34,555 bases of DNA from Thermoproteota archaeon (GTDB taxonomy: Archaea; Korarchaeota; Korarchaeia; Korarchaeales; Korarchaeaceae), in assembly GCA_027492205.1 (NCBI GenBank), contig JAOZFN010000007.1, positions 76,271 through 110,825 of the forward strand. The letters are read 5' to 3'. Shown one piece after another: positions 1,015-24,080 of this stretch. How positions within the stretch are numbered: the first letter of the stretch is position 1; each line of letters starts with the position of its first letter. Below the pieces are notes generated by a model, which saw nothing but the letters and a program-made list of their open reading frames with translations, was not told the DNA's origin and ran no database searches. A program made the translations under genes and the position numbers.

Positions 1015-1692
1015 ATGCCCACCAGAGTCGTCTCAATCGTAGGGTCCCTGGCTAGAGACGCCGCTCTCGCTGCCGCCGCCCAGGTAGGCTCTACCTGCGT
1101 GGTTGAGGGCGGCGAGCCCGAGCCCCTGCCGAAGGGAGTCGTCAAGAGGGCGATCCTGCGGCGCGGAGGTGTCGTGGAGCACAGGGCGACCGACGCCGAC
1201 CCCCTCTCCCTGCTCATGGGATCGGAGGAGTGCGAGTACGCGATCCTCGTCGGGCTCACCTCCCCCCTGGCGCTGAGGATACTCGCCGTGAGGGGCGAGG
1301 AGGAGGCCCGCGAGCTGGTCGACGATCTGACCGTGGCCGTCACGTCCAGCGAGGAGGTCGACGTCAAGGGCGTGAGGTTCGTGCCAATGGGGGATCTGGG
1401 GGAGTTCATAGCCGGTCTGCCCGTCTACCCGGCCTGGCTCAACTGCGGGGAGTGCGGGTTCAAGACCTGCTTCGACTACCTCAAGGCCGCCGCCAGGGGC
1501 GAGGACGTGTTCTGCCCGCCCGGGGAGCCCAAGCCCACCACCCTGAAGGTGAACGGCAGGCCCGTCGGGCTAGTGAGGTTCGTGGAGCGTCAGCTGCGGG
1601 AGCTCGCGCTGGCCTACCTCAGGACCCTGAAGGGCGTCCCGAAGGACATTAAGGAGGTGGAGCTGCGCATACGCCTGACGGGGGATGAGTGA
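1015..1692 (+). CDS. MobB-like protein with C-terminal 4Fe-4S domain, P-loop lost
   Basis: A 225-residue protein. The C-terminal half has Cys144-x2-Cys147-x4-Cys152 (NCGECGFKTC) and a fourth Cys at 167, the pattern of the FeS domain (PF04060 type). It is followed by a tail ending LKGVPKDIKEVELRIR. From memory, archaeal MobB proteins (GTPases linked to molybdopterin guanine dinucleotide synthesis) carry just this C-terminal Fe-S domain and tail. The N-terminus VVSIVGSLARDAALAAA sits where the GTP-binding P-loop GxxxxGK[ST] should be, but Gly-Lys-Ser/Thr is missing, so GTP binding is doubtful. It overlaps the next gene by 8 bases, so the two are likely co-transcribed. Alternative: a stand-alone Fe-S protein of unknown role that supports the radical SAM neighbour. 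Confidence 0.55.
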   Translation: MPTRVVSIVGSLARDAALAAAAQVGSTCVVEGGEPEPLPKGVVKRAILRRGGVVEHRATDADPLSLLMGSEECEYAILVGLTSPLALRILAVRGEEEARELVDDLTVAVTSSEEVDVKGVRFVPMGDLGEFIAGLPVYPAWLNCGECGFKTCFDYLKAAARGEDVFCPPGEPKPTTLKVNGRPVGLVRFVERQLRELALAYLRTLKGVPKDIKEVELRIRLTGDE

Positions 1693-2773
1693 GGCCGGCC
1701 GCCCGACCCTGAGGGAGACGCCCCTCTGCGAGCGTCTCCAGGGCGGCGCCGTCAGGTGCCTGGTGTGCGAGAGGAGGTGCTTCCTACGGCCGGGCCAGGT
1801 TGGGTTCTGCCGCACGAGGGTGAACCTTGAGGGTAGGCTCCAGACCACGGTCTACGGGGCGCTGAGCGCCATGGAGAGCAGGCCCATCGAGGTCAAGCCC
1901 TTCTATCACTTCTGGCCGGGATCCAGCGCCGCCACGATCTCGACATGGGGGTGCAACTTCAGGTGCCCCTGGTGCCAGAACTGGCACATCAGTCAGGTCG
2001 ATCCCCCCGAGAGCCCCTCCTACGTCCCCCCGGAAGACGTGGTCAAGGCGGCGCTCGCGTGGGGGGATGAGGGAGTTTGCGTCAGCTTCAACGAGCCGAC
2101 GATGCTGTTCGAGTACTCCCTCGACCTGTTCAGGCTGGCCAGGGAGAGGGGGCTCTACTGCACCTACGTCTCCAACGGCTACATGACGAGAGAGGCGCTG
2201 GAGGCGCTCGTGGACGCCGGCCTAGACGGGCTGAAGATAGACATCAAGGGGGGCGAGCTGGCCTACGCAAAGTACGCGCCTGGGGCCGACTGGAGGGTCC
2301 CGTGGAGGAACGCCGAGTTGGCGTTGGAGAGGGGCGTGCACGTCGAACTCGTCTACCTGCTCATCCCCGGCGTGAACGACGGGGAAGACGACATCAGGAC
2401 AGTGGCCAGGCTGGCGGCCCGGCTGGGGGAGGGGAACGTCCCCCTGCACTTCACGCGCTACTTCCCCGCCCACCGTTTCAACGCGCCGCCCACGCCCGTC
2501 GAGGCGCTCGAGAAGGCGTGCGAGATGGCGAGGGAGGAGGGGGTAAGGTTCGCGTACGTTGGCAACGTCCCGGGCCACAGGATGGAGAACACCTACTGCC
2601 CGGAGTGCGGCTGCCTCCTCATAAGGAGGTTCGGGCCCAGGGTCGTCGACGTCAGGCTTGAGGAGGGCAGGTGCCCGCGCTGCGGGGCGGAGGTGCCGGT
2701 AGTCGGAAGGGCCAGGCCGACGGGGAGTGACGCGTTTCAAAAGGGGCTCAGAGGTGGAGGTCCAGCACGGTGA
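1685..2773 (+). CDS. amrS: AmrS-type radical SAM enzyme (AmmeMemoRadiSam system)
   Basis: A 362-residue radical SAM protein. The SAM-cluster motif is Cys90-x3-Cys94-x2-Cys97 in the context TWGCNFRCPWCQNWHIS, characteristic of the AmmeMemoRadiSam and pyruvate-formate-lyase-activase-like group. An N-terminal Cys set (Cys25, 28, 32 and 42) may bind a metal. The C-terminus adds a zinc-ribbon-like module with two CPxCG knuckles (YCPECG and RCPRCG). The reaction of this family is not settled. Partners usually found with it (Memo and AMMECR1 proteins) are not in the window. The ATG overlaps the end of the upstream Fe-S gene, giving a two-gene operon. The 3' end overlaps the convergent phosphoesterase gene by 26 bases. 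Confidence 0.85.
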   Translation: MSEAGRPTLRETPLCERLQGGAVRCLVCERRCFLRPGQVGFCRTRVNLEGRLQTTVYGALSAMESRPIEVKPFYHFWPGSSAATISTWGCNFRCPWCQNWHISQVDPPESPSYVPPEDVVKAALAWGDEGVCVSFNEPTMLFEYSLDLFRLARERGLYCTYVSNGYMTREALEALVDAGLDGLKIDIKGGELAYAKYAPGADWRVPWRNAELALERGVHVELVYLLIPGVNDGEDDIRTVARLAARLGEGNVPLHFTRYFPAHRFNAPPTPVEALEKACEMAREEGVRFAYVGNVPGHRMENTYCPECGCLLIRRFGPRVVDVRLEEGRCPRCGAEVPVVGRARPTGSDAFQKGLRGGGPAR

Positions 2774-3680: not shown

Positions 3681-4436
3681 ATGCTTAGGATCGAAGATCT
3701 GCGCGTGACGGTCGATGGGAGGGAGGTGCTGAAGGGCGTTAACCTCGAGCTGGGGGCCAGCGAGATAGCCCTGCTCCTGGGCCCAAACGGCTCTGGGAAG
3801 TCCTCTCTCATCCAGACCCTCCTGGGAAACCCCAAGTATCGGATCAAATCTGGCAGGATCCTCCTCGACGGGAGGGACATTACCGACCTCCCGGCGAACG
3901 AGAGGGCCGCCTTGGGCCTGGGGGCAGTCTTCCAAATGCCGCCAAAGCTCAGGGGTATCAGGCTCAGGGACCTGCTTAGGAGACTTGCTGAGAGGAGCGG
4001 GGCGGATTACCAGAGCCTCATGAAGATGGCGGAGGAGGTGGGCGCGGCTCACCTGCTCGACAGGGACCTGCACGTCGGGTTCAGCGGGGGAGAGGTGAAG
4101 AGGGCCGAGGTCCTCCTCCTGGCCGCCCAGAGACCAAGAGTCGCTCTACTGGACGAGCCCGACTCGGGAGTGGATCTGGACAGCTTACCCGTGCTGGGAA
4201 AGTCCATCAGGAGCGTGATCTCGCAGGACGGAGACAGGGCTCAGGAGAGGAGGTCTGCGTTGGTGGTCACCCACACTGGGCACATAGCGAAGTACCTACA
4301 GGCGACGAGGGCCTTCATCATGGTGGACGGCGTCATTAAGTGCTACGGGGACGCGCAGGCCATCCTCAGAGACGTGGAGAAGTACGGGTTCGAAGGCTGC
4401 CTCAACTGCATCTTCGCCGAGGTGAGGAGGGATTGA
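3681..4436 (+). CDS. sufC: SufC, ATPase of the Fe-S cluster assembly scaffold
   Basis: A 251-residue ABC-type ATPase that drives conformational change in the SufB scaffold during Fe-S cluster assembly in the cytoplasm. Walker A is GPNGSGKS (Lys40), a Q-loop region reads AVFQMPPKLRGI, the signature is GFSGGEVKRAEVL and Walker B is VALLDEPDSGVD followed by a switch His in VVTHTGH. The Glu-Pro-Asp-Ser-Gly-Val-Asp form and the C-terminal GCLNCIF segment fit SufC rather than a transporter ATPase. A strong GGAGGGG ribosome binding site precedes the ATG. Its stop codon overlaps the start of sufB, so the two are translationally coupled. Confidence 0.95.
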   Translation: MLRIEDLRVTVDGREVLKGVNLELGASEIALLLGPNGSGKSSLIQTLLGNPKYRIKSGRILLDGRDITDLPANERAALGLGAVFQMPPKLRGIRLRDLLRRLAERSGADYQSLMKMAEEVGAAHLLDRDLHVGFSGGEVKRAEVLLLAAQRPRVALLDEPDSGVDLDSLPVLGKSIRSVISQDGDRAQERRSALVVTHTGHIAKYLQATRAFIMVDGVIKCYGDAQAILRDVEKYGFEGCLNCIFAEVRRD

Positions 4437-5647
4437 ACGAGGTAGAACTCGAGGAGCTGAGGAAGAGGGCGGAGGCCGCCCTCTCCAAGCCGGCTGCGTA
4501 TGGTCCAGACGTTGACGTGACACAGTTCTCCGTTCCGCCCCCTCCAACGTCGTACGAAGAGATACTGAGCGCCAGCTCCCACCTGCTGGCCAGCGTCGGA
4601 GTCGACCTGACCGGGAGGGGGAGCGCCGGAACCTACCTCCAAGTGGACGAGGAGGCGGTCGAGGTCGAGGTGAGGACCCCAGGTCTCAGGGTCCTGAACC
4701 TCCAGCAGGCCCTGGAGGATGGAATCGTGGACGGCTACCTCTGGAGGGCCGTGCCGGTTGACGCCGACAAGTACACCGCGGCTGCGGAGCTCTTCGGTCG
4801 GAGGCAGGGATACGTGGTGATAGCAGAGAGGGGAGCCAAGATCGAGACGCCCGTCCAGGCGTGCCTCCTCATGTCGGCTCCCGGGGCCATCCAGGCGCCA
4901 CACAACATCGTCATAGTGGAGGAGGGGGCCGAGCTCCACGTGGTGACCGGGTGCCTGACCATGATGGAGCGCGCCGGCCTTCATGCCGGCGTGTCGGAGT
5001 TCTACGTCAAGCGGGGCGGGAAGCTCACCTACACCATGATACACGCCTGGGACGAGCAGACCCACGTGAGACCGAGGACCGGGGTCGTGGTCGAGGAGGG
5101 CGGCCAGTACGTAAGCCACTACGTGAACATGACCCCGACCGCCTCGCTCCAGACCGACCCAAAGGTTTGGCTGGTCGGGAGGGGGGCCAGGGCCCACCTG
5201 TCCTCCGTGATCGTCGCCAAGGGGGACTCCGTCATGGACGTGGGCGGGACGGTCTATCTCCAGGCCCCGGACACTTCGGCGGAGATCGTGTCCAGGGCGG
5301 TCACGAAGGACAGGGCCGAGATGATCGCGAGGTCCCTCATCTCCGCGGAGGCGCCCGGGGTGAGGGGTCACATAGAGTGCGACGGCCTCCTCCTGTCGAA
5401 TCAGTCCCGGATCCTCACGCTCCCGGCCCTAGACGCCAAGCACAGCGACGTCCAGCTCTCCCACGAGGCCGCCGTCGGCAAGCTGGGTGAGGACCAGATA
5501 TTCTACCTGATGTCAAGGGGGTTCTCCGAGGACGAGGCGACGAGCATGCTCGTCCGGGGCTTCATGGAGGTAAAGCTGGAGGGGATCCCGGACGAGCTGA
5601 GGAGGAAGATAGAGATGGCCATCTCGATGGCCGCCGCCGGGCTCTGA
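4433..5647 (+). CDS. sufB: SufB/SufD-family Fe-S cluster scaffold
   Basis: A 404-residue scaffold that forms the SufBC complex. The body shows the SufBD right-handed beta-helix pattern (IVIVEEGAELHVVTGC, VVVEEGGQYVSHYV) and the C-terminal family motif with EAAVGKLGEDQIFYLMSRGFSE, where the conserved G-x-L-xx-Q/E-x-F-Y-LxSRG block is clear. The start is TTG at 4433, overlapping the sufC stop as ATTGA, with GAGGAGG just upstream; an in-frame ATG at 4340 would lie deep inside sufC. There is no separate SufD, as in many archaea with a minimal SufBC system. It is convergent with argS, 34 bases apart. Confidence 0.93.
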   Translation: MNEVELEELRKRAEAALSKPAAYGPDVDVTQFSVPPPPTSYEEILSASSHLLASVGVDLTGRGSAGTYLQVDEEAVEVEVRTPGLRVLNLQQALEDGIVDGYLWRAVPVDADKYTAAAELFGRRQGYVVIAERGAKIETPVQACLLMSAPGAIQAPHNIVIVEEGAELHVVTGCLTMMERAGLHAGVSEFYVKRGGKLTYTMIHAWDEQTHVRPRTGVVVEEGGQYVSHYVNMTPTASLQTDPKVWLVGRGARAHLSSVIVAKGDSVMDVGGTVYLQAPDTSAEIVSRAVTKDRAEMIARSLISAEAPGVRGHIECDGLLLSNQSRILTLPALDAKHSDVQLSHEAAVGKLGEDQIFYLMSRGFSEDEATSMLVRGFMEVKLEGIPDELRRKIEMAISMAAAGL

Positions 5648-5681: not shown

Positions 5682-7604
5682 TCACATCTTCTCCAACCTG
5701 GGAACGCCGATCAGGTCCATGGCAAGGCCGAGGGTGTTCCTCACGGCAGAGACGAGGGCCAGCCTGGCCGACCTGGTGGGCTCCTCGGCCGGTAGGACCG
5801 GATGAGTCTCGTAGAACTTGTTGAACCTCGCGGCCAGCTCGTTCGCGTACTGCGCCACCACGTCAGGCCTCCTGAGCGAGATAGCGGACCTGAGCGTCTC
5901 TGGGAACTCGGCGAGGTGCATCACGAGGTCATACTCGCCGTCCGTCCCAAGGGCGGCCGCCTGATACTCCCGCGGAGATCCCCCCGCCTTCCTCAGTATT
6001 CCCGAAGCTCTGGTGTACGCGTACTGGGTGAAGGGACCGCTGTTGGCCTCCAGGTTCAGCACCCTGTCCCAGGAGAAGACCACAGGCTTCGACGGGTCCA
6101 CCGATAGGAGGGCAAACCTTATCGCGCCCACCGCGACCTTCTCCGCGATCTCCTCCACCTCTTCCTGACTCAACCCGGGCCTGTCCCTGAGGAGTTCCAC
6201 CACCTTGCGCTTGGCCTCGTCCATGAGCTCGTCCAGGGTGACGTAGATCCCCAGCCTGCCGGACATCGTCACCCCAACGAGGTTGACCATCTCGTAGCTG
6301 AAGTGCTGTATCCTGTCAGGGTCCTCCCCGGCGAGGGCCACGCTCGCCCTGACCTGGAGCTGCTCCAGCCTCTGCTCCGCGCCTATCACGTTGTAGCAGA
6401 CCTCGACCCCCACCCCCTCGATCTTGTAGAGTGAGTATGCGACGTCGGTCGCGGTGTAGAGCCAGGTCCCGTCGGACCTGGTGAGGTAGAACTTCAGGGG
6501 GGCGACCTCCTCCAGCCTGCCCTCGGCGTCGAGCTCCCTCACCCTCTCGGCCGTGAGGCCGAAGACCCTCGCCACGTCCTCCCTTTCCCTGATGGCCCTG
6601 GCCAGGTCGACGTAGGCGGCGCCGCCTTCGAAACCCACGTAGCCCGAGTCTTTCAGCCTCTCAAACATCTCAGCGGTCCATCCGTTCCAGATCAGATCGC
6701 TCTCCCAGTCATACGCGTCGTGCTTTATGTCTAGGCGATTCAGCGTGTCGACAAAGCCCTCCATAACGGACTCGACCGCCGCCCTCACGATCTCCTTCGC
6801 CCAAGTCTCGCCAGCCTGGTACGCGGCGAGCAGGTTCCGCACGCCCCCCTCGGGGTCTGGGTCCTCCCGTATGGCCCTGAGGACCTTGTCGACTACTTCC
6901 CCTTGCTCGGCCCTCAGCCTGTCCAGCGCCTGTTCGAGCCTCTCCCTCTCTTCCCCCTCGGCGCGCCTCAGCTCGATCGCTATGTTCGTCGCCGCGTAAA
7001 CTGCCCCGAACCAGTGGTCGATCTTACCTTTAGGCTTCTCTCCCGTCACCTTGGAGAAGCCGTAGGACATCAGGACGGTCTGATTGCCCGAATCGTTCAC
7101 CAGGTAGTGGGTCTCTACCCTGCGCCCCGCGTGCCTGAGCATCCTCGCGTAGGAGTCCCCTATCACGGCGTTCCTGCCGCTGCCGACGTGGAGGGGGTGG
7201 GCGGGATTGGCGCTGGTGTGCTCAACCATGACGACGCCCCCTCGAACGTCTCCACGGCCGAACTCTGGAGAGGAGGCCGCGTCGATTATGGCGCGGATGA
7301 GGGTGGGCTCGTCAAACCTGAAGTTCACGAAGCCCCGGGCGGGCGAGGCGCTGGCGGCTATGGGGATGGATGATAGGTTCAGACGATCCACCACATTCTT
7401 TGAGACTTCCTCTGGGCTCATCTTCAGTCTCCCAGCGAGCTTGAATCCTATTGGCGAACCCAGGTGTCCTACCTCCCTGCTCGGGGTCTTTTGAACCGGT
7501 ATTTCCGTTGGGTCAACCTTGAGACCAAGCCGCGAGGCTGCCTCGGCTATCCCCCTGGCTATGTGCTCTTTCAGAGAGCCGAGGGGATCTCTCGAATCGA
7601 GCAT
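5682..7604 (-). CDS. argS: Arginyl-tRNA synthetase
   Basis: A 640-residue class I synthetase that charges tRNA-Arg. The N-terminal Add-1-like domain covers residues 1-100. The class I signature reads ANPAHPLHVGSGRN (residues 133-145), so the usual HIGH is HVGS; the second signature appears as MSGRLG. The DALR anticodon-binding domain is at the C-terminus (ASGILRKAG, LAARFNKFYETHPVL). The missing last His of HIGH is, from memory, seen in some archaeal ArgRS. The ATG at 7604 follows a GGAAGG ribosome binding site, and a TATA-like CTTAATTAG lies at 7628-7637. It is divergent from the Mrp gene. Confidence 0.96.
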   Translation of the reverse strand: MLDSRDPLGSLKEHIARGIAEAASRLGLKVDPTEIPVQKTPSREVGHLGSPIGFKLAGRLKMSPEEVSKNVVDRLNLSSIPIAASASPARGFVNFRFDEPTLIRAIIDAASSPEFGRGDVRGGVVMVEHTSANPAHPLHVGSGRNAVIGDSYARMLRHAGRRVETHYLVNDSGNQTVLMSYGFSKVTGEKPKGKIDHWFGAVYAATNIAIELRRAEGEERERLEQALDRLRAEQGEVVDKVLRAIREDPDPEGGVRNLLAAYQAGETWAKEIVRAAVESVMEGFVDTLNRLDIKHDAYDWESDLIWNGWTAEMFERLKDSGYVGFEGGAAYVDLARAIREREDVARVFGLTAERVRELDAEGRLEEVAPLKFYLTRSDGTWLYTATDVAYSLYKIEGVGVEVCYNVIGAEQRLEQLQVRASVALAGEDPDRIQHFSYEMVNLVGVTMSGRLGIYVTLDELMDEAKRKVVELLRDRPGLSQEEVEEIAEKVAVGAIRFALLSVDPSKPVVFSWDRVLNLEANSGPFTQYAYTRASGILRKAGGSPREYQAAALGTDGEYDLVMHLAEFPETLRSAISLRRPDVVAQYANELAARFNKFYETHPVLPAEEPTRSARLALVSAVRNTLGLAMDLIGVPRLEKM

Positions 7605-7709
7605 CGTTCCTTCCGCACGCCGGCCCTAATTAAGGATGAGCCAGCGTGGCCCTCCCGGATCGAAGTCATTTTAACGTCGTTGTACGAGGCGTCGCGAGGT
7701 GAGTTTACG

Positions 7710-8591
7710 GTGGCCGCAGGTCAAGGAGGCAAGCCCGCTCCACCCCCGCCGGCGCTGACTCCCCCGGCTCAGGTAGGGGTGAATCAGCAGATAAGGGAGA
7801 GGCTCAGCGGGGTCAAGTACAAGATAATCGTGCTGAGCGGGAAGGGCGGCGTGGGCAAGTCCACCGTCACGGCCAACCTGGCGGCGACGCTGGCCAAGAT
7901 GGGCTACTCCGTCGGCGTGTTCGACTACGACTTCCACGGGCCGGCAATGGCGAGGATGCTGGGCGTCCTGGGGGCTCAGCTGCAGGCATTCCCCATGGGA
8001 ATATTCCCCGTCACGGGGGCGGCCGGCGTCAAGGTGATCTCGCTGGCGTTCCTCCTGCCCGACGAGAAGACTCCGGTGATATGGAGGGGTCCCCTCAAGA
8101 ACAAGGCCCTCCAAGAGCTGATGAGCAACGTCGTCTGGGGTCAGCTGGACTTCCTGCTGTTCGACCTGCCGCCGGGCACCGGCGACGAGGCGCTCAACAT
8201 CGCCCAGAACATACCCGACGTCACCGGGGCCGTGGTGGTGACGATACCCAGCGTCGTCTCTCAGGTGGCCGTGGAGAAGTCCGCGGAATTCTGCAAGCAG
8301 CTGAACGTCCCCCTACTTGGCGTGATAGAGAACATGAGCTACTTCAGGTGTCCGCACTGCGGGGAGATCACGGAAATATTCGGCAGCGGGGCAGGGGAGA
8401 AGATCGCCGAGGAGGAGGGCATCAGGTTACTTGGAAGGCTCCCGCTCGATCCTAACGTGGCCCGGTGCCTGGATGAGGGTAGGCCCGTTCCCCTGTGCGC
8501 CCCCGAGTCCGAAACGACGAGGGCCTTCGAGGAACTGGCCAAGAAGCTCGTGGAGATCCTGGAGAATGGAGGGGAAGGAGGGTCTGAGTGA
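7710..8591 (+). CDS. Mrp/NBP35-family Fe-S carrier ATPase (ApbC-like)
   Basis: A 293-residue deviant Walker P-loop ATPase that carries Fe-S clusters to target proteins. SGKGGVGKST (residues 43-52) is the deviant Walker A motif and DLPPGTGDE (152-160) the Mrp hallmark. CPHC at 214-217 provides the cluster-bridging cysteines of the dimer. The first 20 residues are Pro/Ala-rich and low-complexity. GTG at 7710 was chosen as start because GAGGTGAG lies 6 bases upstream; longer in-frame extensions would run into the argS gene. It sits between Suf and the Fe-S respiratory genes, which fits a role in cluster delivery. The 3' end is 15 bases from the convergent mobA. Confidence 0.93.
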   Translation: MAAGQGGKPAPPPPALTPPAQVGVNQQIRERLSGVKYKIIVLSGKGGVGKSTVTANLAATLAKMGYSVGVFDYDFHGPAMARMLGVLGAQLQAFPMGIFPVTGAAGVKVISLAFLLPDEKTPVIWRGPLKNKALQELMSNVVWGQLDFLLFDLPPGTGDEALNIAQNIPDVTGAVVVTIPSVVSQVAVEKSAEFCKQLNVPLLGVIENMSYFRCPHCGEITEIFGSGAGEKIAEEEGIRLLGRLPLDPNVARCLDEGRPVPLCAPESETTRAFEELAKKLVEILENGGEGGSE

Positions 8592-8606: not shown

Positions 8607-9260
8607 TCATCCAGGGACTTCTCGGGTCCCTCCCAAGTTTTTCACTATTCTGAGGGCTAGGAGGAGGTCTTCGAGCGTGTTAACGTTGAGGAAGGTTACC
8701 TCCGGTCTCTCAGACAGCGCGCCCACCGGAACGAGCTTGACCCTCAGGAGGGAGAGGGCCGACGAGATCCTCAGCTCTCCGCGCGATACGACCTCCTCGG
8801 CAGCTCGGAGGAATTCCTGCCTCCGGTAGGCGGCGACGAGGGGTTCGATGTAGCCGTTGGGCCACGCCGGGACCGCGGCGTCCGCGTCGCCGCCGGCCAA
8901 CTCGGCTTCCAGAACCTCATAGACCCTCTGAGTGACGAAGGGCGTGTCTGCCGGGGCCACCAGGACGGTGCGGCCCTCGGCGGATCGTGCCCCCTCCATC
9001 AGGCCGATCAGCGGCGCCCTGGGGGCCGAATCCGGCTCCACGACTATCTTGGCGGTGGACCCGACGACCTTAGTCAGGCTTTCAGCCTTCTCCCTCCCCC
9101 TGACGACGATCATGACTTCGTCTGAGGCTGGCCGAAGCGCCTCCAGGGAGTACAGGATCATGGGCCTCCCGCCAACCTCGAGGAGAGGCTTGTACAGGCC
9201 GTTCAACCTCTTGGACTCTCCTCCGGCCAAGATCACCCCTGAAACCCGGTCCCGTGGCAA
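8607..9260 (-). CDS. mobA: MobA-like molybdenum cofactor guanylyltransferase
   Basis: A 217-residue nucleotidyltransferase. VILAGGESKRLNG and KPLLEVGGRPM are the nucleotide-binding signature of the MobA/GlmU-like fold. VAPADTPFV supplies the metal-binding Asp (PxDxP-type). MobA attaches GMP to molybdopterin to make the bis-MGD cofactor used by DMSO-reductase-family enzymes. It lies 12 bases downstream of the polyferredoxin gene in one operon, divergent from such an enzyme, which supports MobA over other cytidylyl- or uridylyltransferases. The start is TTG at 9260 with GAGGTGGAG six bases upstream. A related alternative would be a CofC or MocA-like enzyme. Confidence 0.82.
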   Translation of the reverse strand: MPRDRVSGVILAGGESKRLNGLYKPLLEVGGRPMILYSLEALRPASDEVMIVVRGREKAESLTKVVGSTAKIVVEPDSAPRAPLIGLMEGARSAEGRTVLVAPADTPFVTQRVYEVLEAELAGGDADAAVPAWPNGYIEPLVAAYRRQEFLRAAEEVVSRGELRISSALSLLRVKLVPVGALSERPEVTFLNVNTLEDLLLALRIVKNLGGTREVPG

Positions 9261-9272
9261 GGCAACTCCACC

Positions 9273-10769
9273 TCATGAGAGCCCCTCTAGCATCTTCTTC
9301 GCCCTGCACTGCTGGCAGAGCAGGGCGGTCTCCGCGGCCTTGTCCATCCCCTGCGCCTTGAGCCTCCTGTAGACGGCCATGACCAGGCTCTGGGGTCCTA
9401 TAGGCGTCCCGCACTCGACGCACCTGGCCAGCTCGTCTGAACGGAGAACTCTGGGCTCGGATAGATCTTCACGGGGATCCAGCTCCGCGGGGTGGATCTT
9501 TATCGCCGACTCCGGACACACTTCGAGGCAGTACCCGCAGCCCACGCACAGGTCTCGCCTGAAGGTCAAGCTCGTGAGCCTCCCGCCCTTCACCAGGTGC
9601 AGGGCACCCATCGGACACTTCTCCGCGCACACACCACAGAGGGTGCACCCCTGGTCGACCTCAACCGCGGAGAGCAGACCCTCGATTTTCACCGGCTGCG
9701 AGCACAGGTTGGCCGCCATGGACAGCAGGTCCCTCCTCCTCTGGATGGTGAGGGGGGTGGGCGAGGCCCCCGCGCCCCCGACATCGACCTCCTCCGCAGC
9801 CTTGGCGATGACCTGGGGTCCACCCTCGAGGAACTGAAGGGCTACGCCCGCCTGGTTCATCAGCGGAACGAGCTTTGAGGCCTCCCCGACGATCTTGACG
9901 AACGCGTCCCTCCTGTCGCAGTCCAGCCTCGGGCAGTACAGGGCCACCCCGTCCACCCCGGACTCGGCGGCCCTGAGAATGGGGGTCCACCCCGCCGAGG
10001 CGGCACACGGCACCCTCACTGGCAGCACGTGGGCCGAGTGAACCTTCACCCTGGCCAGCTCAGACACGCCGGCGTCGCACGTGAAGAGGACAATCCACGG
10101 GAGGGCCCTCTGGGGGGGTGAGAGGAGGTCCAGGTGAGAGGCCTGCCAGTCGGAGAACGTTGGAATCTGAAGGGCCCCCGTCGGGCACACCGACGCGCAG
10201 AGTCCGCAGTCCTTGCAGGAGAACTCCGAGATCGCGGGACCCCCATCTCCGATTGTTACGGAGCCTGCCGGGCATACCTCCTCGCAGCGCCTGCAGCTAC
10301 CGGCCAGCGTACCCGGGCAGACGCCGACGAGCTTCGGCGACTCCGGGTAACTCCAGGCGCGCCGGGGGAGGCTGAGTAGCTCCCTCCTGGAGATCCTCCT
10401 CGGTGGGGTCCTAAGAGTCCTCTCGATTCCCCGAGTGAGCCTTGGAGCCTCCTCGGACCACTTCAGGGCGTACCTCAGCACGGCCGCCGCCGCGGCCTCC
10501 CGCCCCGGCCCCACCAAGTGCGACAGGGAGACTGGTATGAGCGTCAGCGGGTTTATTTCAGGGCCAGAGAGGATCCTCCTGAGCTCCGTGACGTCCGGCT
10601 CTCCGAGCGGATTCAGGATCAGGGCGGTCGGCCCCGAGAGGTAGTACTCCGGGCGCTCGAAGAGGTCTGCCGCGCTTGCGCGGACTGGCTCGGAGATCTC
10701 GGCGGATATCTCCTCGATCCACTCTTCCGTCGGCGTTACCACGACCAATTTCGGAGATTTTCCGCTCAT
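9273..10769 (-). CDS. Polyferredoxin with FlpD/MvhD-like core, linked to the Mo oxidoreductase
   Basis: A 498-residue cytoplasmic-type Fe-S protein. Residues 1-120 are not recognised. Two 4Fe-4S motifs follow at Cys151/159/162/166 and Cys185/188/191/195 (CKDCGLCASVCP). Residues 224-320 (IVLFTCDAG, VRVPCAASAGW, GVDGVALYCP) resemble FlpD/MvhD, the subunit that passes electrons from hydrogenase to heterodisulfide reductase. Two further clusters lie at Cys375/378/381/385 and Cys408/411/414/418, and a CxxC...CxxC knuckle at 450-488. SRRELLS (128-134) and QRRRDLLS (343-350) each precede a cluster pair, suggesting internal duplication. There is no signal peptide. ATG at 10769 follows GGAGAGG. Its partner and direction of electron flow are unknown. 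Confidence 0.75.
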   Translation of the reverse strand: MSGKSPKLVVVTPTEEWIEEISAEISEPVRASAADLFERPEYYLSGPTALILNPLGEPDVTELRRILSGPEINPLTLIPVSLSHLVGPGREAAAAAVLRYALKWSEEAPRLTRGIERTLRTPPRRISRRELLSLPRRAWSYPESPKLVGVCPGTLAGSCRRCEEVCPAGSVTIGDGGPAISEFSCKDCGLCASVCPTGALQIPTFSDWQASHLDLLSPPQRALPWIVLFTCDAGVSELARVKVHSAHVLPVRVPCAASAGWTPILRAAESGVDGVALYCPRLDCDRRDAFVKIVGEASKLVPLMNQAGVALQFLEGGPQVIAKAAEEVDVGGAGASPTPLTIQRRRDLLSMAANLCSQPVKIEGLLSAVEVDQGCTLCGVCAEKCPMGALHLVKGGRLTSLTFRRDLCVGCGYCLEVCPESAIKIHPAELDPREDLSEPRVLRSDELARCVECGTPIGPQSLVMAVYRRLKAQGMDKAAETALLCQQCRAKKMLEGLS

Positions 10770-10898: not shown

Positions 10899-10931
10899 AA
10901 TGGCTATAGGCCCGATCTTTCAGGTGTGGCC

Positions 10932-13451
10932 ATGGCCTCAGCGAAGATCGCAAGGAGGGACTTCCTGAAGGTTGCGGCCGTCACGGGCGCGCTGGCCACG
11001 CTCTCAGGGCCGGAAGATGTGGTGATAAGGACCCTAAAGAGGGTGGAGGCAAGGGCGCTCGGGCCGCAGGAGTACACCGTTCCCGGGCTCTGCAGGATGT
11101 GCGTCAACAGCTGCGGCACATTCTTCCGCGTGAGGGACGGAAGGCTGCGCAAGATCGACCCCAACCCCAACAACCCCGCCAACGCTGGCAACCTGTGCGC
11201 AAGAGGCCAGGCCGGCGTCAGGAGGGTCTACAACCCAGACAGGCTCAAAAGGCCTCTGATTAGACGGGACAAGTCTCTCAGGGGAACGTGGCAGGGCTTC
11301 GAGGCGACCGACTGGGACACGGCCCTCGACGAGGCCGCGGCCGTGCTGAAGAAGTACATCGACGCCGGGGAGGCCAAGTCGATCATGGTCGGAGGGGGCT
11401 GGCTCCCCTGCGGCGTCTACAAGCCATACGTCGTGGCATTCGCAAAGGCCATAGGAACGCCCAACTTCGTTGGAAGCCCGCCGCCGCTCTGCTTCTTCCC
11501 GAAGGCATTCGCCTGGACGGTCACGATAGGGGCAGGAGGGCACCCGCACATCAGGGCCGACCACGAGTACGCCAACTACATCATCCTGCTCAGGAGGAAC
11601 CTCGCGGGCAGCATCGGCGTCCCCTACGCCTGGCAGTTCGCCAGGGCCAAGAAGCGGGGCGCCAAGATCGTGGTGCTCGATCCCAGGATGAGCGAGAGCG
11701 CGGCGCTGGCAGACCTGTGGGTTCCAATCAAGCCGGGGACCGACCTGGCCTTCCTCCTCGCGATGGGCCACGTTATCGTCAGCGAAGGGCTCTACGACGA
11801 GGAGTTCCTGAGGAGGTACACCAACGCCCCCATGCTCCTCAGGGCGGACAGCAACGCCCCGGCCAAGACCTGGGACGACCCCGACACCGGCAAGAAGAAG
11901 TACCTCGTGTACGACGAGGCGACCGGCGAGGCAAAAGCTCACGACGAGGCCCTTCGACCCGCCCTCGCGGGTGAGTTCGACGTTGAGATCGATGGAGAGA
12001 CGGTGAGGGTGAAGACGGCCTTCCAGGCGCTTGTCGAGAGGCTTCAGCAGTACACGCCCGAGTGGGCCTCGCAGATCTGCGACGTGCCCGCGGAGACCAT
12101 TGTGCGGGTGGCCAGAGAGTTCGGGACGATAAAGCCCGCCGTGATAGACCCAGGCTGGCACGACCCGAAGTACCAGAACTCGGTGCAGACTTGGAGGATG
12201 GTGGCAATTCTCAACGCCCTCGTGGGCAACATCGACAGGCCGGGAGGCCTGATATTCAACGCCGCGGGCAGGAGCCTGAAGTCCTCTGCCCTGCCGGATG
12301 CTAGGGCAGACGTCCAGTGGATGAAGAAGAAGGGGATCATAGTCTCCACGGCCCAGCCTATGATCCTGGCCTACTACGACGCCATAGTCAACGGCGACCC
12401 GTACCCCATAAAGGCCGCCGTGCTGACCGGTGGCAACTGGATCAGAACCCTGCCCGACGACAGGAAGTGGAAGGAGGCGTTCAAGAAGCTCGAGGACGTC
12501 ATAGCCATCGACGTCATGCCCAACGACACGGTCTCCTACGCGGACATCATCCTGCCGGACACCACGTACCCCGAGAGGGACGACCCCATGTTCGGCGTCG
12601 GGTTCTCGCCGGACGCAGCCGTGGCGACCAGCGTCAGGGCCATCGACCCGATCTACGACTGCAGGCCCATGATCGACATCCTCGTGCAGCTGGCGGACAG
12701 GCTGGGCAAGAAGGATGCCTACTTCCAGAACCTTGGGGCCATGCTGGGCGTCGACGGGGCGGCCCTCAAGTCCGCGTATGAGTCCGAGGGGATCGCTGGC
12801 ATAAGGAGGGTGCAGGTGGAGGCGAAGGGGGTTAGCTACGACGAGATCGTGGCGAAGGGCGCCGTCGTGCTCAAGGCGAGAGACCAGCTCATCGGCACGA
12901 TGCCGTACAAGAAGCCCCTGGGCACGCCGAGCGGCAAGGTTGAGATCTACAGCCTCAAGATGGCTGGGATAATGGCCAAGAAGGGCTACAGCGAGCACTG
13001 GGACCCCATTCCGACCTGGATCCCGCCCAGGGTCATGGACGGGGTCGGCGGCAACGTGTTCTACCTCACCTACGGGAGGAGCCCGATCGCGAGCCACACC
13101 CACACCGCCGACAACGACCTGCTCGCCAGCATAGGGAGGCCCGAGCACTTCGGCGTATGGATCAACGCTGCCAAGGCCGCCGAACTCGGCATCAGGGACG
13201 GCGACATGGTGAAGCTGACCAGCCTGGCCACCGGCCAGTCCGTCGTCGCCAAGGCCTTCGTCACCGACGGCGTGAGGCCGGACACCGTGTTCACCGTGTC
13301 CGCCTGGGGCGCCGAGAGCGAGGAGCTGAAGGTCGCCAAGGGGATCGGTGGAGTCGCCTTGAACAAGCTCTGGCCGATGCACGAGGACCTGTTCACGCTG
13401 CTGCCCAACGCGATGACTCAGGAGGTACTTGTTAGGGTGGAGAAGGCGTGA
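10932..13451 (+). CDS. Tat-exported molybdopterin oxidoreductase, PsrA/PhsA/SreA-like catalytic subunit
   Basis: An 839-residue DMSO-reductase-family enzyme. The N-terminus ARRDFLKVAAVTG is a twin-arginine signal. Cys54-x2-Cys57-x3-Cys61-x27-Cys89 binds the proximal 4Fe-4S cluster. Cys187, in NFVGSPPPLCFFPKA, falls where the Mo ligand is expected in this family, so a Cys-ligated Mo is likely. Later blocks (VVLDPRMSESAALADLWVPI, VGNIDRPGG, the C-terminal dinucleotide-binding domain from about residue 690) are all present, so it looks intact. The four-cluster and NrfD partners and the Cys ligand point to polysulfide, sulfur or thiosulfate reductase. Tetrathionate or arsenate reductase cannot be excluded from sequence. 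ATG at 10932 follows GGTG; GTG at 10926 is an alternative. Confidence 0.88.
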   Translation: MASAKIARRDFLKVAAVTGALATLSGPEDVVIRTLKRVEARALGPQEYTVPGLCRMCVNSCGTFFRVRDGRLRKIDPNPNNPANAGNLCARGQAGVRRVYNPDRLKRPLIRRDKSLRGTWQGFEATDWDTALDEAAAVLKKYIDAGEAKSIMVGGGWLPCGVYKPYVVAFAKAIGTPNFVGSPPPLCFFPKAFAWTVTIGAGGHPHIRADHEYANYIILLRRNLAGSIGVPYAWQFARAKKRGAKIVVLDPRMSESAALADLWVPIKPGTDLAFLLAMGHVIVSEGLYDEEFLRRYTNAPMLLRADSNAPAKTWDDPDTGKKKYLVYDEATGEAKAHDEALRPALAGEFDVEIDGETVRVKTAFQALVERLQQYTPEWASQICDVPAETIVRVAREFGTIKPAVIDPGWHDPKYQNSVQTWRMVAILNALVGNIDRPGGLIFNAAGRSLKSSALPDARADVQWMKKKGIIVSTAQPMILAYYDAIVNGDPYPIKAAVLTGGNWIRTLPDDRKWKEAFKKLEDVIAIDVMPNDTVSYADIILPDTTYPERDDPMFGVGFSPDAAVATSVRAIDPIYDCRPMIDILVQLADRLGKKDAYFQNLGAMLGVDGAALKSAYESEGIAGIRRVQVEAKGVSYDEIVAKGAVVLKARDQLIGTMPYKKPLGTPSGKVEIYSLKMAGIMAKKGYSEHWDPIPTWIPPRVMDGVGGNVFYLTYGRSPIASHTHTADNDLLASIGRPEHFGVWINAAKAAELGIRDGDMVKLTSLATGQSVVAKAFVTDGVRPDTVFTVSAWGAESEELKVAKGIGGVALNKLWPMHEDLFTLLPNAMTQEVLVRVEKA

Positions 13452-13461
13452 GGTGGTGAGT

Positions 13462-14025
13462 ATGACGAGGTACGGGATGATTATAGACCTCCGCAGCTGC
13501 ATAGGCTGCGGGGCCTGCATAGCCGCGTGCGACATGGAGAACGAGACCCCGTGGGAGGAGGGCAAGCGCAGGACCTACGTGCCCAGGTTCACCTTCGGCA
13601 GCTACCCCAACGTCACCGTCGTCTACATGCCGAGGCTGTGCATGCACTGCGAGAACCCGCCCTGCGTGTCCGTCTGCCCCACCGGGGCCAGCCACGTCAC
13701 CGCAGACGGGGTAGTCCTTGTGGAGCACGACCTGTGCATCGGGTGCAAGTACTGCGTCGTCGCGTGCCCCTACGACGCCAGGTACGTGGACGAGAGGATA
13801 CGCTCGGTGGACAAGTGCACCTTCTGCTACACCAACAGGGTCCTCAAGGGTGAGGTCCCGGCGTGCGATGCCACCTGCCCCGGCAGGGTGAGGATCTTCG
13901 GCGACCTCGACGACCCCAACAGCGAGGCTGGCAGGCTCGCCGCGAGCGGGCTCGCCAAGCCGCTGAGGCCCGACCTCGGAACAAACCCGAAGGTGCTCTA
14001 CGTCCCGAAGGTTAAGTCCATTTGA
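13462..14025 (+). CDS. PsrB-like electron-transfer subunit with four 4Fe-4S clusters
   Basis: A 187-residue ferredoxin subunit that carries electrons between the membrane subunit and the Mo enzyme. Sixteen cysteines form four clusters: CIGCGACIAAC (13-23), CMHCENPPCVSVCP (60-73), CIGCKYCVVACP (92-103) and the set Cys119/122/135/139. This spacing is that of PsrB/PhsB/DmsB proteins. It has no signal peptide, so it would be co-exported with the Tat-signal partner. The ATG at 13462 follows GAGGTGGTGAG and lies 10 bases after the catalytic gene. The next gene begins 11 bases after its stop. Confidence 0.92.
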   Translation: MTRYGMIIDLRSCIGCGACIAACDMENETPWEEGKRRTYVPRFTFGSYPNVTVVYMPRLCMHCENPPCVSVCPTGASHVTADGVVLVEHDLCIGCKYCVVACPYDARYVDERIRSVDKCTFCYTNRVLKGEVPACDATCPGRVRIFGDLDDPNSEAGRLAASGLAKPLRPDLGTNPKVLYVPKVKSI

Positions 14026-14036
14026 GGTGGTGGTCG

Positions 14037-14978
14037 ATGGAGCCGGTAGTTCAGCACGTTTGGGGCTGGCTGATCGCCCTCTACCTGTTCTTGGGCGGTA
14101 TGGGCGGAGCCACCATGATCGTGGCCCACTACTTCTACGCCTCCAAGAGAGAGAAGTCCCTGGCTGCACCGGGGGCGCTGGCGTCGCTGATCATGGTCGT
14201 CCTAGGTGCGCTGTTCCTGATCCTGGACCTGGAGAAGCCGGAGAAGTTCTACCTGGCCGTGATCAAGTTCCAGACGTCCTCGTGGGTCTTCAGGGGGACC
14301 ATGATACTGAGCGGGTTCATCGTGTTCGGCGCGCTCTACGCGGCCGGCCTGCTCCCCTGGTTCCAGTGGGTGCCCTGGGCCAAGAGCGAGAGGGCCATGG
14401 ACGCGCTCGGGCTGATCGCCTCCGCGTTCGGGCTGCTGGTCACAACCTACACGGGAATCCTGCTCGGCGTCCTCAAGGCGGTGCCCTTCTGGCACTCCCC
14501 CGCACTTCCGGCCCTATTCGTCGCCAGCGGGCTGGCGACCGGGATAGCGGCCATGGGCATAATCAACGCCCTCCAGGGACTTAGGAGGCCGGTAGATGAG
14601 AGGGTGAGGTTCGTCGGATACTGCACCACGCTCTCCAAGTGGGCCGCCATAGTCGTGGGGGCGGAGATGTTCATCCTCGCCCTGTACTACTACGTCAACA
14701 TGTTCGGCCCCGCCGAGGCGTCCTCTGCGGTCAGCATGATGCTCTTCGGCGAACTGAGGAGGTCCTTCCTGGCCTACCTGGACTTCGTCCTCCTCGGCGC
14801 GGCGCTGCTGTCGATGCTGTACCACGTGAGGAAGGCGGACCTGATCGCCGGAAGGGATCAGAGCGTCGTGAAGAGCTGCATACTGCCCCTCGGAGGCGCC
14901 ATCTTGATAATAATCGGCGGGCTCCTACTCAGGAGGACAATCCTCGAGGCTGGGGTCATGACCCAGTTCGCCCCGTGA
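14037..14978 (+). CDS. NrfD/PsrC-family membrane anchor and quinol-interacting subunit
   Basis: A 313-residue membrane protein with about eight hydrophobic spans. Conserved family features are GGMGGA in the first helix region, LDLEKPEKF (the D-x-x-x-P-x-x-F element after helix 2) and SSWVFRGTMI. It anchors the PsrAB-like pair at the outer face of the membrane and is expected to exchange electrons with quinol. The ATG at 14037 follows GAGGTGGTGG. A hairpin plus T-run follows the stop, closing the three-gene operon. Confidence 0.9.
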   Translation: MEPVVQHVWGWLIALYLFLGGMGGATMIVAHYFYASKREKSLAAPGALASLIMVVLGALFLILDLEKPEKFYLAVIKFQTSSWVFRGTMILSGFIVFGALYAAGLLPWFQWVPWAKSERAMDALGLIASAFGLLVTTYTGILLGVLKAVPFWHSPALPALFVASGLATGIAAMGIINALQGLRRPVDERVRFVGYCTTLSKWAAIVVGAEMFILALYYYVNMFGPAEASSAVSMMLFGELRRSFLAYLDFVLLGAALLSMLYHVRKADLIAGRDQSVVKSCILPLGGAILIIIGGLLLRRTILEAGVMTQFAP

Positions 14979-15075: not shown

Positions 15076-15735
15076 TCACGGCAGTCCCAAGATCCCCGCC
15101 TCATCCTCGACGTACGCCGAGAGGGCCGTGACGGCCTCTCGGTAGAAACCGACCTTTGACTCGCGCCTGACGCACTCCGAGAAGGCTGGCACCCACCTTC
15201 TCAGGTGTTCCACCAGCCTACGGAGATCCCTCTCAGCCTTCTCAGCCTCTTCAGGGTCCCCCTCCTGAATTCCGAGCTTCACCTGCTCCAGAAGGTAGGC
15301 CGCAAGCTCCAGCTCAACTGCCACGTGCTCTGGGAGGTCCCTGAAGTCGTCCGACACGCCGAGACCCCAGCCCCTCAAGATCGCGAGAATCTCAGAGACC
15401 TCATCTGACAAGACTTCCCTCTCCTTCGACACGTAGACCGACTCGTACGGGGGGCAGGGTAGCTTGGGATGGGCGGAGATGAAAAGCCTGGTGTACTCCT
15501 TCCGGAGATCAGGGACGTCTGTGTCCGCGTTGAGTGCCGCCAACAGCTTTTCAAATTCCTCAACAGAGTCGTAACCCAGCTCCTCCAGTTCTGGCAGGCA
15601 TCTGCTGAGCGCCTTCTCGGCCCAGCCACCGAAGAGGAGGTCCTCCACCTCTCCCTCTGGGTACTGAAGTGCGAGAGCCAGAACCGAGTAGGCGGTGGCC
15701 CTCGCAGCAAAGAGGGTAGGGTCTGGAGCATCCAT
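15076..15735 (-). CDS. TorD/DmsD-like chaperone for the Mo enzyme
   Basis: A 219-residue, almost all-helical protein with the marks of the TorD family: KEYTRLFI, the CPPYESVY block (usually P-Y-E-S-V-Y), and LPEHVAVELELAAYLLEQ (usually the D/E-H-x-x-x-E-L-E-F-M motif). These chaperones bind the Tat signal of Mo enzymes and hold export until cofactor insertion. It lies convergent with the Psr-like operon, which fits that role. ATG at 15735 follows GGGTGAGGGA; GTG at 15744 is an alternative. A TATA-like CTTTAAATT lies at 15770-15778. Confidence 0.85.
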   Translation of the reverse strand: MDAPDPTLFAARATAYSVLALALQYPEGEVEDLLFGGWAEKALSRCLPELEELGYDSVEEFEKLLAALNADTDVPDLRKEYTRLFISAHPKLPCPPYESVYVSKEREVLSDEVSEILAILRGWGLGVSDDFRDLPEHVAVELELAAYLLEQVKLGIQEGDPEEAEKAERDLRRLVEHLRRWVPAFSECVRRESKVGFYREAVTALSAYVEDEAGILGLP

Positions 15736-15832
15736 TTCCCTCACCCAGCCTGCGTCTCTAGTTCTCGACCAATTTAAAGGCTCCAGGCCTGAACCTCAGC
15801 CTCCTCGCGGGCGGAGAAATCCTTATCCGGCT

Positions 15833-22939: not shown

Positions 22940-23227
22940 TTGTTCGACCTGGGTCCCTCGGAGATACTCCTGCTGATGATCCTAGCCCTCATATTGTTCG
23001 GCCCCAGCAAACTTCCTGAGCTCGGGAGGAGCTTAGGAGAGGCCTTGAGGGAGTTCAGAGAGGCCTCTCAGGGGAGACCTGCCCAGACCACTCCGGTGGC
23101 CCAAGAGATCCCTGGAGTCGGGGGGAAGACCGTCAGAGACCTGGCAAGGGATCTGGGGATTGACACGAGCGGAAAGAGCGACGAGGAGCTTGAGAGGCTT
23201 ATCCGAGGTCTGCTCAAGGCCCGGTAA
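22940..23227 (+). CDS. tatA: TatA-like twin-arginine translocase subunit
   Basis: A 95-residue protein that forms the export pore of the Tat system. The N-terminus MFDLGPSEILLLMILALILFG has one membrane span, then the FGPSKLPELGRSLGEALREFREA amphipathic helix with the conserved F-G-P-x-K-x-P-E-L-G hinge. The charged tail is typical, though it ends in a small folded-looking segment (VRDLARDLGIDTSGKSDEELERLI). The start is TTG at 22940 with GGAAGGTGAT upstream. It is convergent with tatC and overlaps it by 14 bases. Confidence 0.92.
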   Translation: MFDLGPSEILLLMILALILFGPSKLPELGRSLGEALREFREASQGRPAQTTPVAQEIPGVGGKTVRDLARDLGIDTSGKSDEELERLIRGLLKAR

Positions 23228-24080
23228 AGGCTTCGGCCTTCGGCTCAAGCCTGGCGGCGAGCAGCGTGGCGAGCCCGTAGAGTATGAAGAAGGGCAGCGT
23301 CAGCATCATCATGCTCACGGGAGTTGGGTCTGGCGTGATTATTGCGGCCACAGCCGATATCACGAAGAACACCGTTCTCCACTTTTTCTTCAGGGTATTT
23401 GACTTGATGAACCCCATCTTAGCGGCTAGAGCCACCGCGAGCGGGAACGTAAAGAACAGGCCGGAGGAGACCATGCCGAGCAGGACGAAGTTGAAGAATT
23501 GTTTAACCGAGAACGTGAGCTCCACGCCGGAACCCAGGTTTATCCAGGCTAGTATCGCAAACGTGGCTGGTATGATCAGGTAATAGGCATAGAAGGCCCC
23601 AAGCAGGAAGAGAATGGCGAATGCGAGTGAAAATCCTATCAGGAGCTTTTTCTCCCTTGGAAAGAGGGCCGGCCTCAGGTAGGCGTAAATCTGATAGCCC
23701 ACGTAGGGCGAGGTGATCAAGAGGCCGACTAGGATCGCCAGATATATCATGACCTCTATCCCGTCGAGCCACCCGTAGGCGATCAGCTTGATGTTGACCT
23801 CTTGGGCACCTAGGAGGGCTCCAAACCTGTTGGCGAACTTGTTCGTGGACTCTAGGAGGTGGTCCCGCATGTAGAAAAATATGCTCAAGACGAGTGGGGT
23901 GTACCCGCCGCCCCCCGGGTTTTTCCCGAAGACTAGAGAGGATGGAATCGCGGTGACCGCGATGGATGCGCCTATAACCGCGAAAAGCACCCTCCTCAGC
24001 CTGACCAGCAGCTCGACGACGTGCTCCTGGATGGGCCTAGGGACATCCTCGGGAGGCTGGGACAACCCCTCTCCCCCCAC
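23214..24080 (-). CDS. tatC: TatC twin-arginine translocase receptor
   Basis: A 288-residue membrane protein with six predicted spans. HVVELLVRLRRVLFA matches the N-terminal H-x-x-E-L-R-x-R motif; SPYVGYQIYAYLRPALFPREKK is the strongly conserved first-loop region; AAIITPDPTPVSMMMLTLP matches the T-P-D-P-x-S segment. An unusually long extracytoplasmic loop after helix 1 includes VFGKNPGGGGYTPLVLSIFFYMRD. TatC recognises the RR signals, of which at least two are encoded here (the phosphoesterase and the Mo enzyme). GTG at 24080 is assumed as start; TTG at 24065 behind GGGGGAGAGGGG is also possible. Confidence 0.93.
   Translation of the reverse strand: MGGEGLSQPPEDVPRPIQEHVVELLVRLRRVLFAVIGASIAVTAIPSSLVFGKNPGGGGYTPLVLSIFFYMRDHLLESTNKFANRFGALLGAQEVNIKLIAYGWLDGIEVMIYLAILVGLLITSPYVGYQIYAYLRPALFPREKKLLIGFSLAFAILFLLGAFYAYYLIIPATFAILAWINLGSGVELTFSVKQFFNFVLLGMVSSGLFFTFPLAVALAAKMGFIKSNTLKKKWRTVFFVISAVAAIITPDPTPVSMMMLTLPFFILYGLATLLAARLEPKAEAFTGP

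What the first reader, a model, noticed from the sequence alone, without database searches (positions are those of the whole stretch)
9273..10769. Polyferredoxin with an FlpD/MvhD-like core paired with a Mo enzyme operon
The protein joins four 4Fe-4S motifs, an FlpD-like domain and a Cys-knuckle tail, is divergent from a Psr-like operon and shares an operon with mobA. FlpD/MvhD normally connects hydrogenase or formate dehydrogenase to heterodisulfide reductase. Here it could feed electrons from the cytoplasm into sulfur or oxyanion respiration, or form a new electron-bifurcating module.
Basis: inference. Interest (0 to 1): 0.6.

Follow-up and report, generated by a model that had tools for sequence, protein, structure and literature searches.

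The report
Chaperone-linked polyferredoxin for molybdenum enzyme assembly
This archaeal gene encodes a cytoplasmic iron-sulfur protein, present in many archaea and bacteria but with no known function, that almost always accompanies the TorD chaperone and exported molybdenum enzymes, so it more likely helps build those enzymes than feeds or bifurcates electrons.

Summary
The gene is real but lies on the minus strand (9273-10769; 498 aa). It has four 4Fe-4S motifs, an MvhD/FlpD-derived core and a C-terminal Cys quartet. mobA follows 12 bp downstream and a Psr/Phs-like operon diverges from it. The FlpD assignment holds at family level: a profile of cysteine-bearing homologs matches six solved MvhD chains (E 6e-12 to 2e-10). 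The C-terminal half matches HycF of formate hydrogenlyase, whose quartet metal sits near the interface with the Mo subunit FdhF.

Pairing with Mo-enzyme operons is conserved in 28 inspected loci, from Proteobacteria (FDH3) through haloarchaea to several deep archaeal families. The tightest partner is the TorD chaperone: 25 of 27 archaeal genomes with this protein have TorD, against 23 of 367 without it. In a sister genus the match is 7/7 versus 0/9 although the two genes are unlinked.

Partner Mo subunits carry twin-arginine signals (25/26); the polyferredoxins do not (0/20). The HdrA flavin domain is missing, so bifurcation is not supported. Best reading: a TorD-partnered accessory polyferredoxin acting on the Mo enzyme before export. 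Its role is inferred, not shown. SreD of sulfur reductase operons may be the same kind; no SreD sequence was available to test.

The parts
9273..10769 (-). polyferredoxin gene P0001, 498 aa
10335..10769 (-). residues 1-145, unassigned N-terminal region; in long homologs this position holds an HdrA-type N-terminal domain, but no relation is detectable in P0001
10161..10334 (-). residues 146-203, first 4Fe-4S pair (C151, 159, 162, 166; C185, 188, 191, 195)
9810..10100 (-). residues 224-320, FlpD/MvhD-derived core with C231, C255, C279, C284
9288..9656 (-). residues 372-494, HycF-like module: second 4Fe-4S pair plus Cys quartet
9294..9434 (-). Cys quartet C450xxC453-x31-C485xxC488
8607..9260 (-). 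mobA-like nucleotidyltransferase, 12 bp downstream, same strand
7563..8591 (+). Mrp/NBP35 Fe-S carrier ATPase; the same kind of gene sits by the homolog in Sulfitobacter, Pseudosulfitobacter and Sagittula
10926..13451 (+). Psr/Phs-like molybdopterin catalytic subunit with Tat signal; nearest solved relative 2vpw thiosulfate/polysulfide reductase
13429..14025 (+). 4Fe-4S electron-transfer subunit of the Mo enzyme
14022..14978 (+). NrfD/PsrC membrane subunit
15076..15744 (-). TorD/NarJ-type chaperone

Best explanation
P0001 is a cytoplasmic accessory polyferredoxin of a family that travels with TorD-type chaperones and Tat-exported bis-MGD molybdenum enzymes. Its parts derive from older redox modules: an HdrA-type ferredoxin pair, an MvhD/FlpD core, and a HycF-type tail (two clusters plus a Cys quartet). 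The proposed mechanism is that the HycF-like tail docks on the TorD-held Mo subunit, and the clusters pass electrons (or a cluster) to it while Mo cofactor and Fe-S clusters are installed, before export. Shown: domain homologies, conserved pairing, TorD co-occurrence, opposite topology signals. Inferred: docking, electron or cluster delivery, timing before export.
For: TorD co-occurrence: 25 of 27 archaeal genomes with the protein have TorD, against 23 of 367 without it (Fisher 4e-24, relatedness not corrected). In sister genus g3, 7/7 versus 0/9 (p 9e-5), although the genes are unlinked there, while Molydop_binding enzymes occur in 15 of these 16 genomes. Neighbourhoods: Mo enzyme genes next to the homolog in 28 inspected loci, TorD usually adjacent, with MobA, FdhD, Mrp or Tat genes in several. 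Topology: twin-arginine motif in 25/26 partner Mo subunits, in 0/20 polyferredoxins. The C-terminal half matches HycF (74 bits, all four quartet Cys aligned); in the FHL structure this quartet binds a metal opposite FdhF, the bis-MGD subunit (PMC9474812).
Against: No experiment on any member was found. G133 has the protein without a detectable TorD and away from Mo genes; G386 has both but apart. In the sister genus g3 the gene sits by a CBS-domain gene, not by a Mo operon. Co-occurrence with TorD would also follow if the protein were a working electron carrier of the enzyme. Relatedness of the genomes was not modelled. HycF works in electron transfer, not assembly.
Confidence: 0.55

Rival explanations
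1. It is a working electron carrier: it collects electrons in the cytoplasm and passes them to, or takes them from, the Mo enzyme complex through its membrane subunit.
For: Four cluster motifs and an MvhD-type core, which in known complexes relays electrons between hydrogenase or FDH and Hdr. The HycF-like tail belongs to an electron relay in FHL.
Against: The Mo subunits carry Tat signals in 25/26 cases and the polyferredoxin carries none, so the catalytic subunit should lie across the membrane. The protein accompanies both dehydrogenases and reductases. In g3 it is unlinked from the enzyme but tracks TorD.
Confidence: 0.22
2. It is a Fe-S cluster or sulfur carrier, or a redox checkpoint for the chaperone-bound enzyme, rather than an electron donor.
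For: Mrp/NBP35 Fe-S carrier ATPases lie next to it in the window and in several alphaproteobacteria; SufC/SufD-type ORFs (named by eye) also lie in the window at 3681-5647. Clusters and quartet are conserved while the FlpD cysteines are not.
Against: Mrp was not seen in the other archaeal and bacterial neighbourhoods inspected. Ferredoxin-type clusters are usually stable redox centres.
Confidence: 0.15
3. It forms a new electron-bifurcating module with Hdr-like partners.
For: Collinear match to the C-terminal part of HdrA2; long homologs also carry an HdrA-type N-terminal domain.
Against: No FAD-binding family is found in P0001 or in the long homolog L093, whereas HdrA of the same genome shows it. 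No hdrB, hdrC or hydrogenase genes were seen in the cluster.
Confidence: 0.03

Closest known systems
'4Fe-4S binding protein' of proteobacterial FDH3 operons (fdh3AB - TorD - DUF3305/DUF3306)
   Same: Matches residues 150-495 including the core and the Cys quartet; next to a Tat-exported Mo enzyme and TorD.
   Different: Has a longer N-terminal region related to HdrA; FlpD cysteines lost; partner is formate dehydrogenase.
SreD of the sulfur reductase operon sreABCDE (Acidianus ambivalens, Thermoproteus tenax)
   Same: Described as a polyferredoxin of unknown function in an operon with Mo, Fe-S and membrane subunits and a chaperone (PMC3189178).
   Different: No SreD sequence was available here, so homology is untested.
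HycF / HyfH of formate hydrogenlyase
   Same: Two 4Fe-4S clusters followed by CxxC-x31/34-CxxC; profile match over 130 residues.
   Different: HycF is a subunit of a membrane hydrogenase complex; P0001 adds two clusters and an FlpD core, and no hydrogenase genes are nearby. HycF forms its own supported clade.
MvhD/FlpD and HdrA2
   Same: Core homologous to MvhD; ferredoxin pair plus core collinear with HdrA2.
   Different: No flavin domain, no Hdr or hydrogenase partners, cysteines not conserved in the family.
TorD-linked 'hypothetical ferredoxins' reported in a survey of NarJ-family chaperones
   Same: PMC4464133 reports hypothetical ferredoxins among additional genes frequent (43%) in TorD-Fdh operons.
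   Different: That survey gives no domain analysis or function in the passages read.

Membership tests
FlpD/MvhD (PF02662) | sequence-profile homology to MvhD | tested here: met
   Family profile A3 hits six MvhD chains, E 5.8e-12 to 2e-10; P0001 alone 22.2-25.3 bits around the cut-off 22.3
FlpD/MvhD (PF02662) | cysteines available for the [2Fe-2S] cluster | tested here: inconclusive
   C231, C255, C279, C284 kept in P0001, but lost in proteobacterial and g3 homologs; which ones bind a cluster was not tested
FlpD/MvhD (PF02662) | encoded with hydrogenase or FDH and Hdr subunits of a cytoplasmic complex | tested here: not met
   None seen in the cluster; the genome's regular HdrA-MvhD pair lies by a CO dehydrogenase on another contig
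bifurcating HdrA module | FAD-binding domain | tested here: not met
   No FAD family in P0001 or in long homolog L093
HycF/HyfH-type module | two 4Fe-4S motifs followed by a Cys quartet | tested here: met
   hmmsearch 74 bits, all four quartet Cys aligned; PDB 7z0s_F matches residues 372-494
HycF/HyfH-type module | part of a membrane hydrogenase (complex I superfamily) operon | tested here: not met
   Neighbours are mobA, Mo enzyme, TorD, Mrp
TorD-linked polyferredoxins of Mo-enzyme operons (group defined in this report) | four Fer4 motifs plus Cys quartet | tested here: met
   Most motif cysteines invariant in alignment A1, quartet fully so
TorD-linked polyferredoxins of Mo-enzyme operons (group defined in this report) | TorD in the genome and a Tat-exported Mo enzyme nearby | tested here: met
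   TorD at 15076-15744; twin-arginine motif in the Mo subunit
SreD of sulfur reductase | gene cluster with sreA, B, C and chaperone E | tested here: met
   Mo, Fe-S and NrfD subunits and TorD present, though the polyferredoxin gene is divergent rather than in line; literature description
SreD of sulfur reductase | sequence homology to SreD | not testable with these tools

The most novel reading that the evidence does not exclude
A widespread, undescribed class of maturation factor: a polyferredoxin assembled from Hdr/Mvh and formate-hydrogenlyase modules that gives electrons to the chaperone-held molybdenum enzyme, making cofactor insertion or cluster assembly redox-driven before Tat export.
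Probability: 0.35. Interest if true: 0.7.

Novelty: new variant of a known kind. Interest (0 to 1): 0.45.

Why it matters
[quoted passage not shown] The chaperone (TorD) and the cofactor steps (MobA, FdhD) are known, but I found no described role for a dedicated redox protein in their assembly. A conserved partner of TorD found in bacteria and archaea would give one, and would assign a function to a protein now annotated only as '4Fe-4S binding protein' or 'hydrogenase iron-sulfur subunit'. It also warns against reading every FlpD-like domain as an Hdr link or a bifurcation module.

Tried and rejected
hhalign of P0001 residues 1-140 against the HdrA-type N-termini of long homologs found nothing (probability about 0.1%). 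A quartet-only profile against the PDB ranks HycF at E 7e-4, but C2H2 zinc fingers rank above it by matching the first CxxC only; the HycF claim therefore rests on the longer C-terminal match. Lokiarchaeal, Armatimonadota and Proteobacteria loci from the first scan (L010-L016) look HdrA-like or are short ferredoxins, not family members. Literature searches for polyferredoxin with chaperone or TorD found nothing on function. Bifurcation was considered and rejected for lack of a flavin domain. The electron-carrier reading was kept as a rival.

Full report
WHAT IS THERE. The finding gives no strand. The + strand of 9273-10769 is closed by seven stops; the minus strand is an open frame of 498 aa starting with ATG at 10769. 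It holds four 4Fe-4S motifs, an FlpD-like stretch and a four-cysteine tail. mobA follows 12 bp downstream on the same strand. A Mo-enzyme operon (molybdopterin subunit, Fe-S subunit, NrfD) diverges on the other side, followed by a TorD-type chaperone on the opposite strand. The catalytic subunit is nearest to thiosulfate/polysulfide reductase 2vpw (280.8 bits) and scores 378.8 bits against PhsA, below that model's cut-off of 694, so its substrate is open. A second species of the genus keeps the gene at 97% identity in the same order.

THE DOMAINS. The single sequence scores FlpD only at the edge of Pfam's cut-off (22.2 against 22.3). A profile of eight homologous cores that keep cysteines finds six MvhD chains of the PDB, E 5.8e-12 to 2e-10, with a wide gap to the next hit. 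The ferredoxin pair plus core is collinear with the C-terminal part of HdrA2 (E 4e-22). The C-terminal half matches HycF of E. coli formate hydrogenlyase over 130 residues including the quartet (74 bits). In the FHL structure that quartet (CxxC-x34-CPxC) binds one metal ion near the interface with FdhF, the Mo subunit (PMC9474812). Long homologs begin with an HdrA N-terminal domain (E 6.8e-15 to 5odc_A). In P0001 this position is shorter and shows no relation. No flavin domain is found in P0001 or in the long homolog L093. Structure prediction from the single sequence failed (pLDDT 35.8).

THE FAMILY AND ITS NEIGHBOURS. Homologs on proteobacterial plasmids are '4Fe-4S binding protein' genes of FDH3 operons with TorD, DUF3305 and DUF3306, and in several cases an Mrp/NBP35 ATPase or MobA. 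In haloarchaea the homolog stands by TorD with a Mo-Fe-S-NrfD operon, MobA and arsenic genes (Natronorubrum), or with an FDH-like operon (Haladaptatus). In 13 further archaeal loci and four bacterial ones it also stands with a Mo enzyme, usually directly beside TorD, sometimes with Tat or FdhD genes. With the window this makes 28 loci. Exceptions: G133 and G386, a distant linkage in G151, two short contigs (L099, L100), and the sister genus g3, where the gene lies by a CBS-domain gene. Genes in unannotated loci were named by phmmer against window and plasmid genes, with Tat genes named by eye.

THE PARTNER IS TORD. In the 16 genomes of genus g3 the polyferredoxin occurs in seven and TorD in the same seven, with none in the other nine (Fisher p 9e-5), although the genes are unlinked there. 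Molydop_binding enzymes in general occur in 15 of those 16 genomes and do not track it. Over 394 archaeal genomes, 25 of 27 with the polyferredoxin have TorD against 23 of 367 without (p 4e-24). The set of 27 was assembled from two searches with some judgement: G169 and G185 were admitted on their match to P0001 and their neighbourhood, and HdrA hits were left out. The genomes are related, so the p-values overstate the case. By family, 10 of 11 families with the polyferredoxin have TorD; I count 20 families with TorD in the whole sample. One of the two misses (G369) is 62% complete, and its contig ends at the polyferredoxin.

TOPOLOGY. A twin-arginine motif is seen in 25 of 26 partner Mo subunits and in none of 20 polyferredoxins, and P0001 has no membrane-like segment. 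The protein and the exported catalytic subunit therefore most likely meet only before export.

MECHANISM. I take these facts to favour an accessory role in assembly: the HycF-like tail docks on the TorD-held Mo subunit and the clusters provide electrons, or a cluster, for maturation. Docking, transfer and timing are inference. A working electron carrier remains possible (0.22). Bifurcation is unlikely (0.03).

KNOWN OR NEW. The gene kind is known by position only: 'hypothetical ferredoxins' in TorD-Fdh operons (PMC4464133) and SreD, a 'polyferredoxin of unknown function', in sulfur reductase operons (PMC3189178). SreD homology could not be tested. I found no report of the HdrA/MvhD/HycF make-up or of the TorD link, but the library searched lacks most subscription journals. 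A tree of the C-terminal module sets HycF and its relatives apart with strong support and leaves the deep order of the family unresolved.

Noticed in passing
G000 contig C11:124000-137000 (locus L170): The genome has a regular HdrA (669 aa, flavin domain present), an FlpD-ferredoxin protein (303 aa) and a small Fe-S protein next to a CO dehydrogenase (Prismane/CODH family), suggesting a CO-linked Hdr complex.
   Followed up: partly
L171-L174 (genus g3): TorD in the sister genus sits in a conserved cluster next to an ABC transporter set with a ZnuA-like binding-protein ORF, a small CopG/NikR-like ORF and a CBS-domain gene (names by eye).
   Followed up: no
L049 and L101 (genome G014): Both the Mo catalytic subunit and the polyferredoxin are split into several frames in this MAG, either by sequencing errors or by decay.
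   Followed up: no
L050, L051, L053, L054 (genomes G017, G021): Two paralogous Mo catalytic subunit genes per genome both end at a contig edge near residue 366-373, as if the paralogs share a repeated stretch that broke assembly.
   Followed up: no
window 1015-2773: A protein with a FeS (PF04060) motif weakly like MobB/FeS-domain proteins overlaps the start of a radical SAM gene.
   Followed up: no
window 23214-24080: A tatC gene lies about 7.5 kb beyond TorD; Tat genes also lie beside the homologs in L092, L145 and L146 (by eye there).
   Followed up: partly
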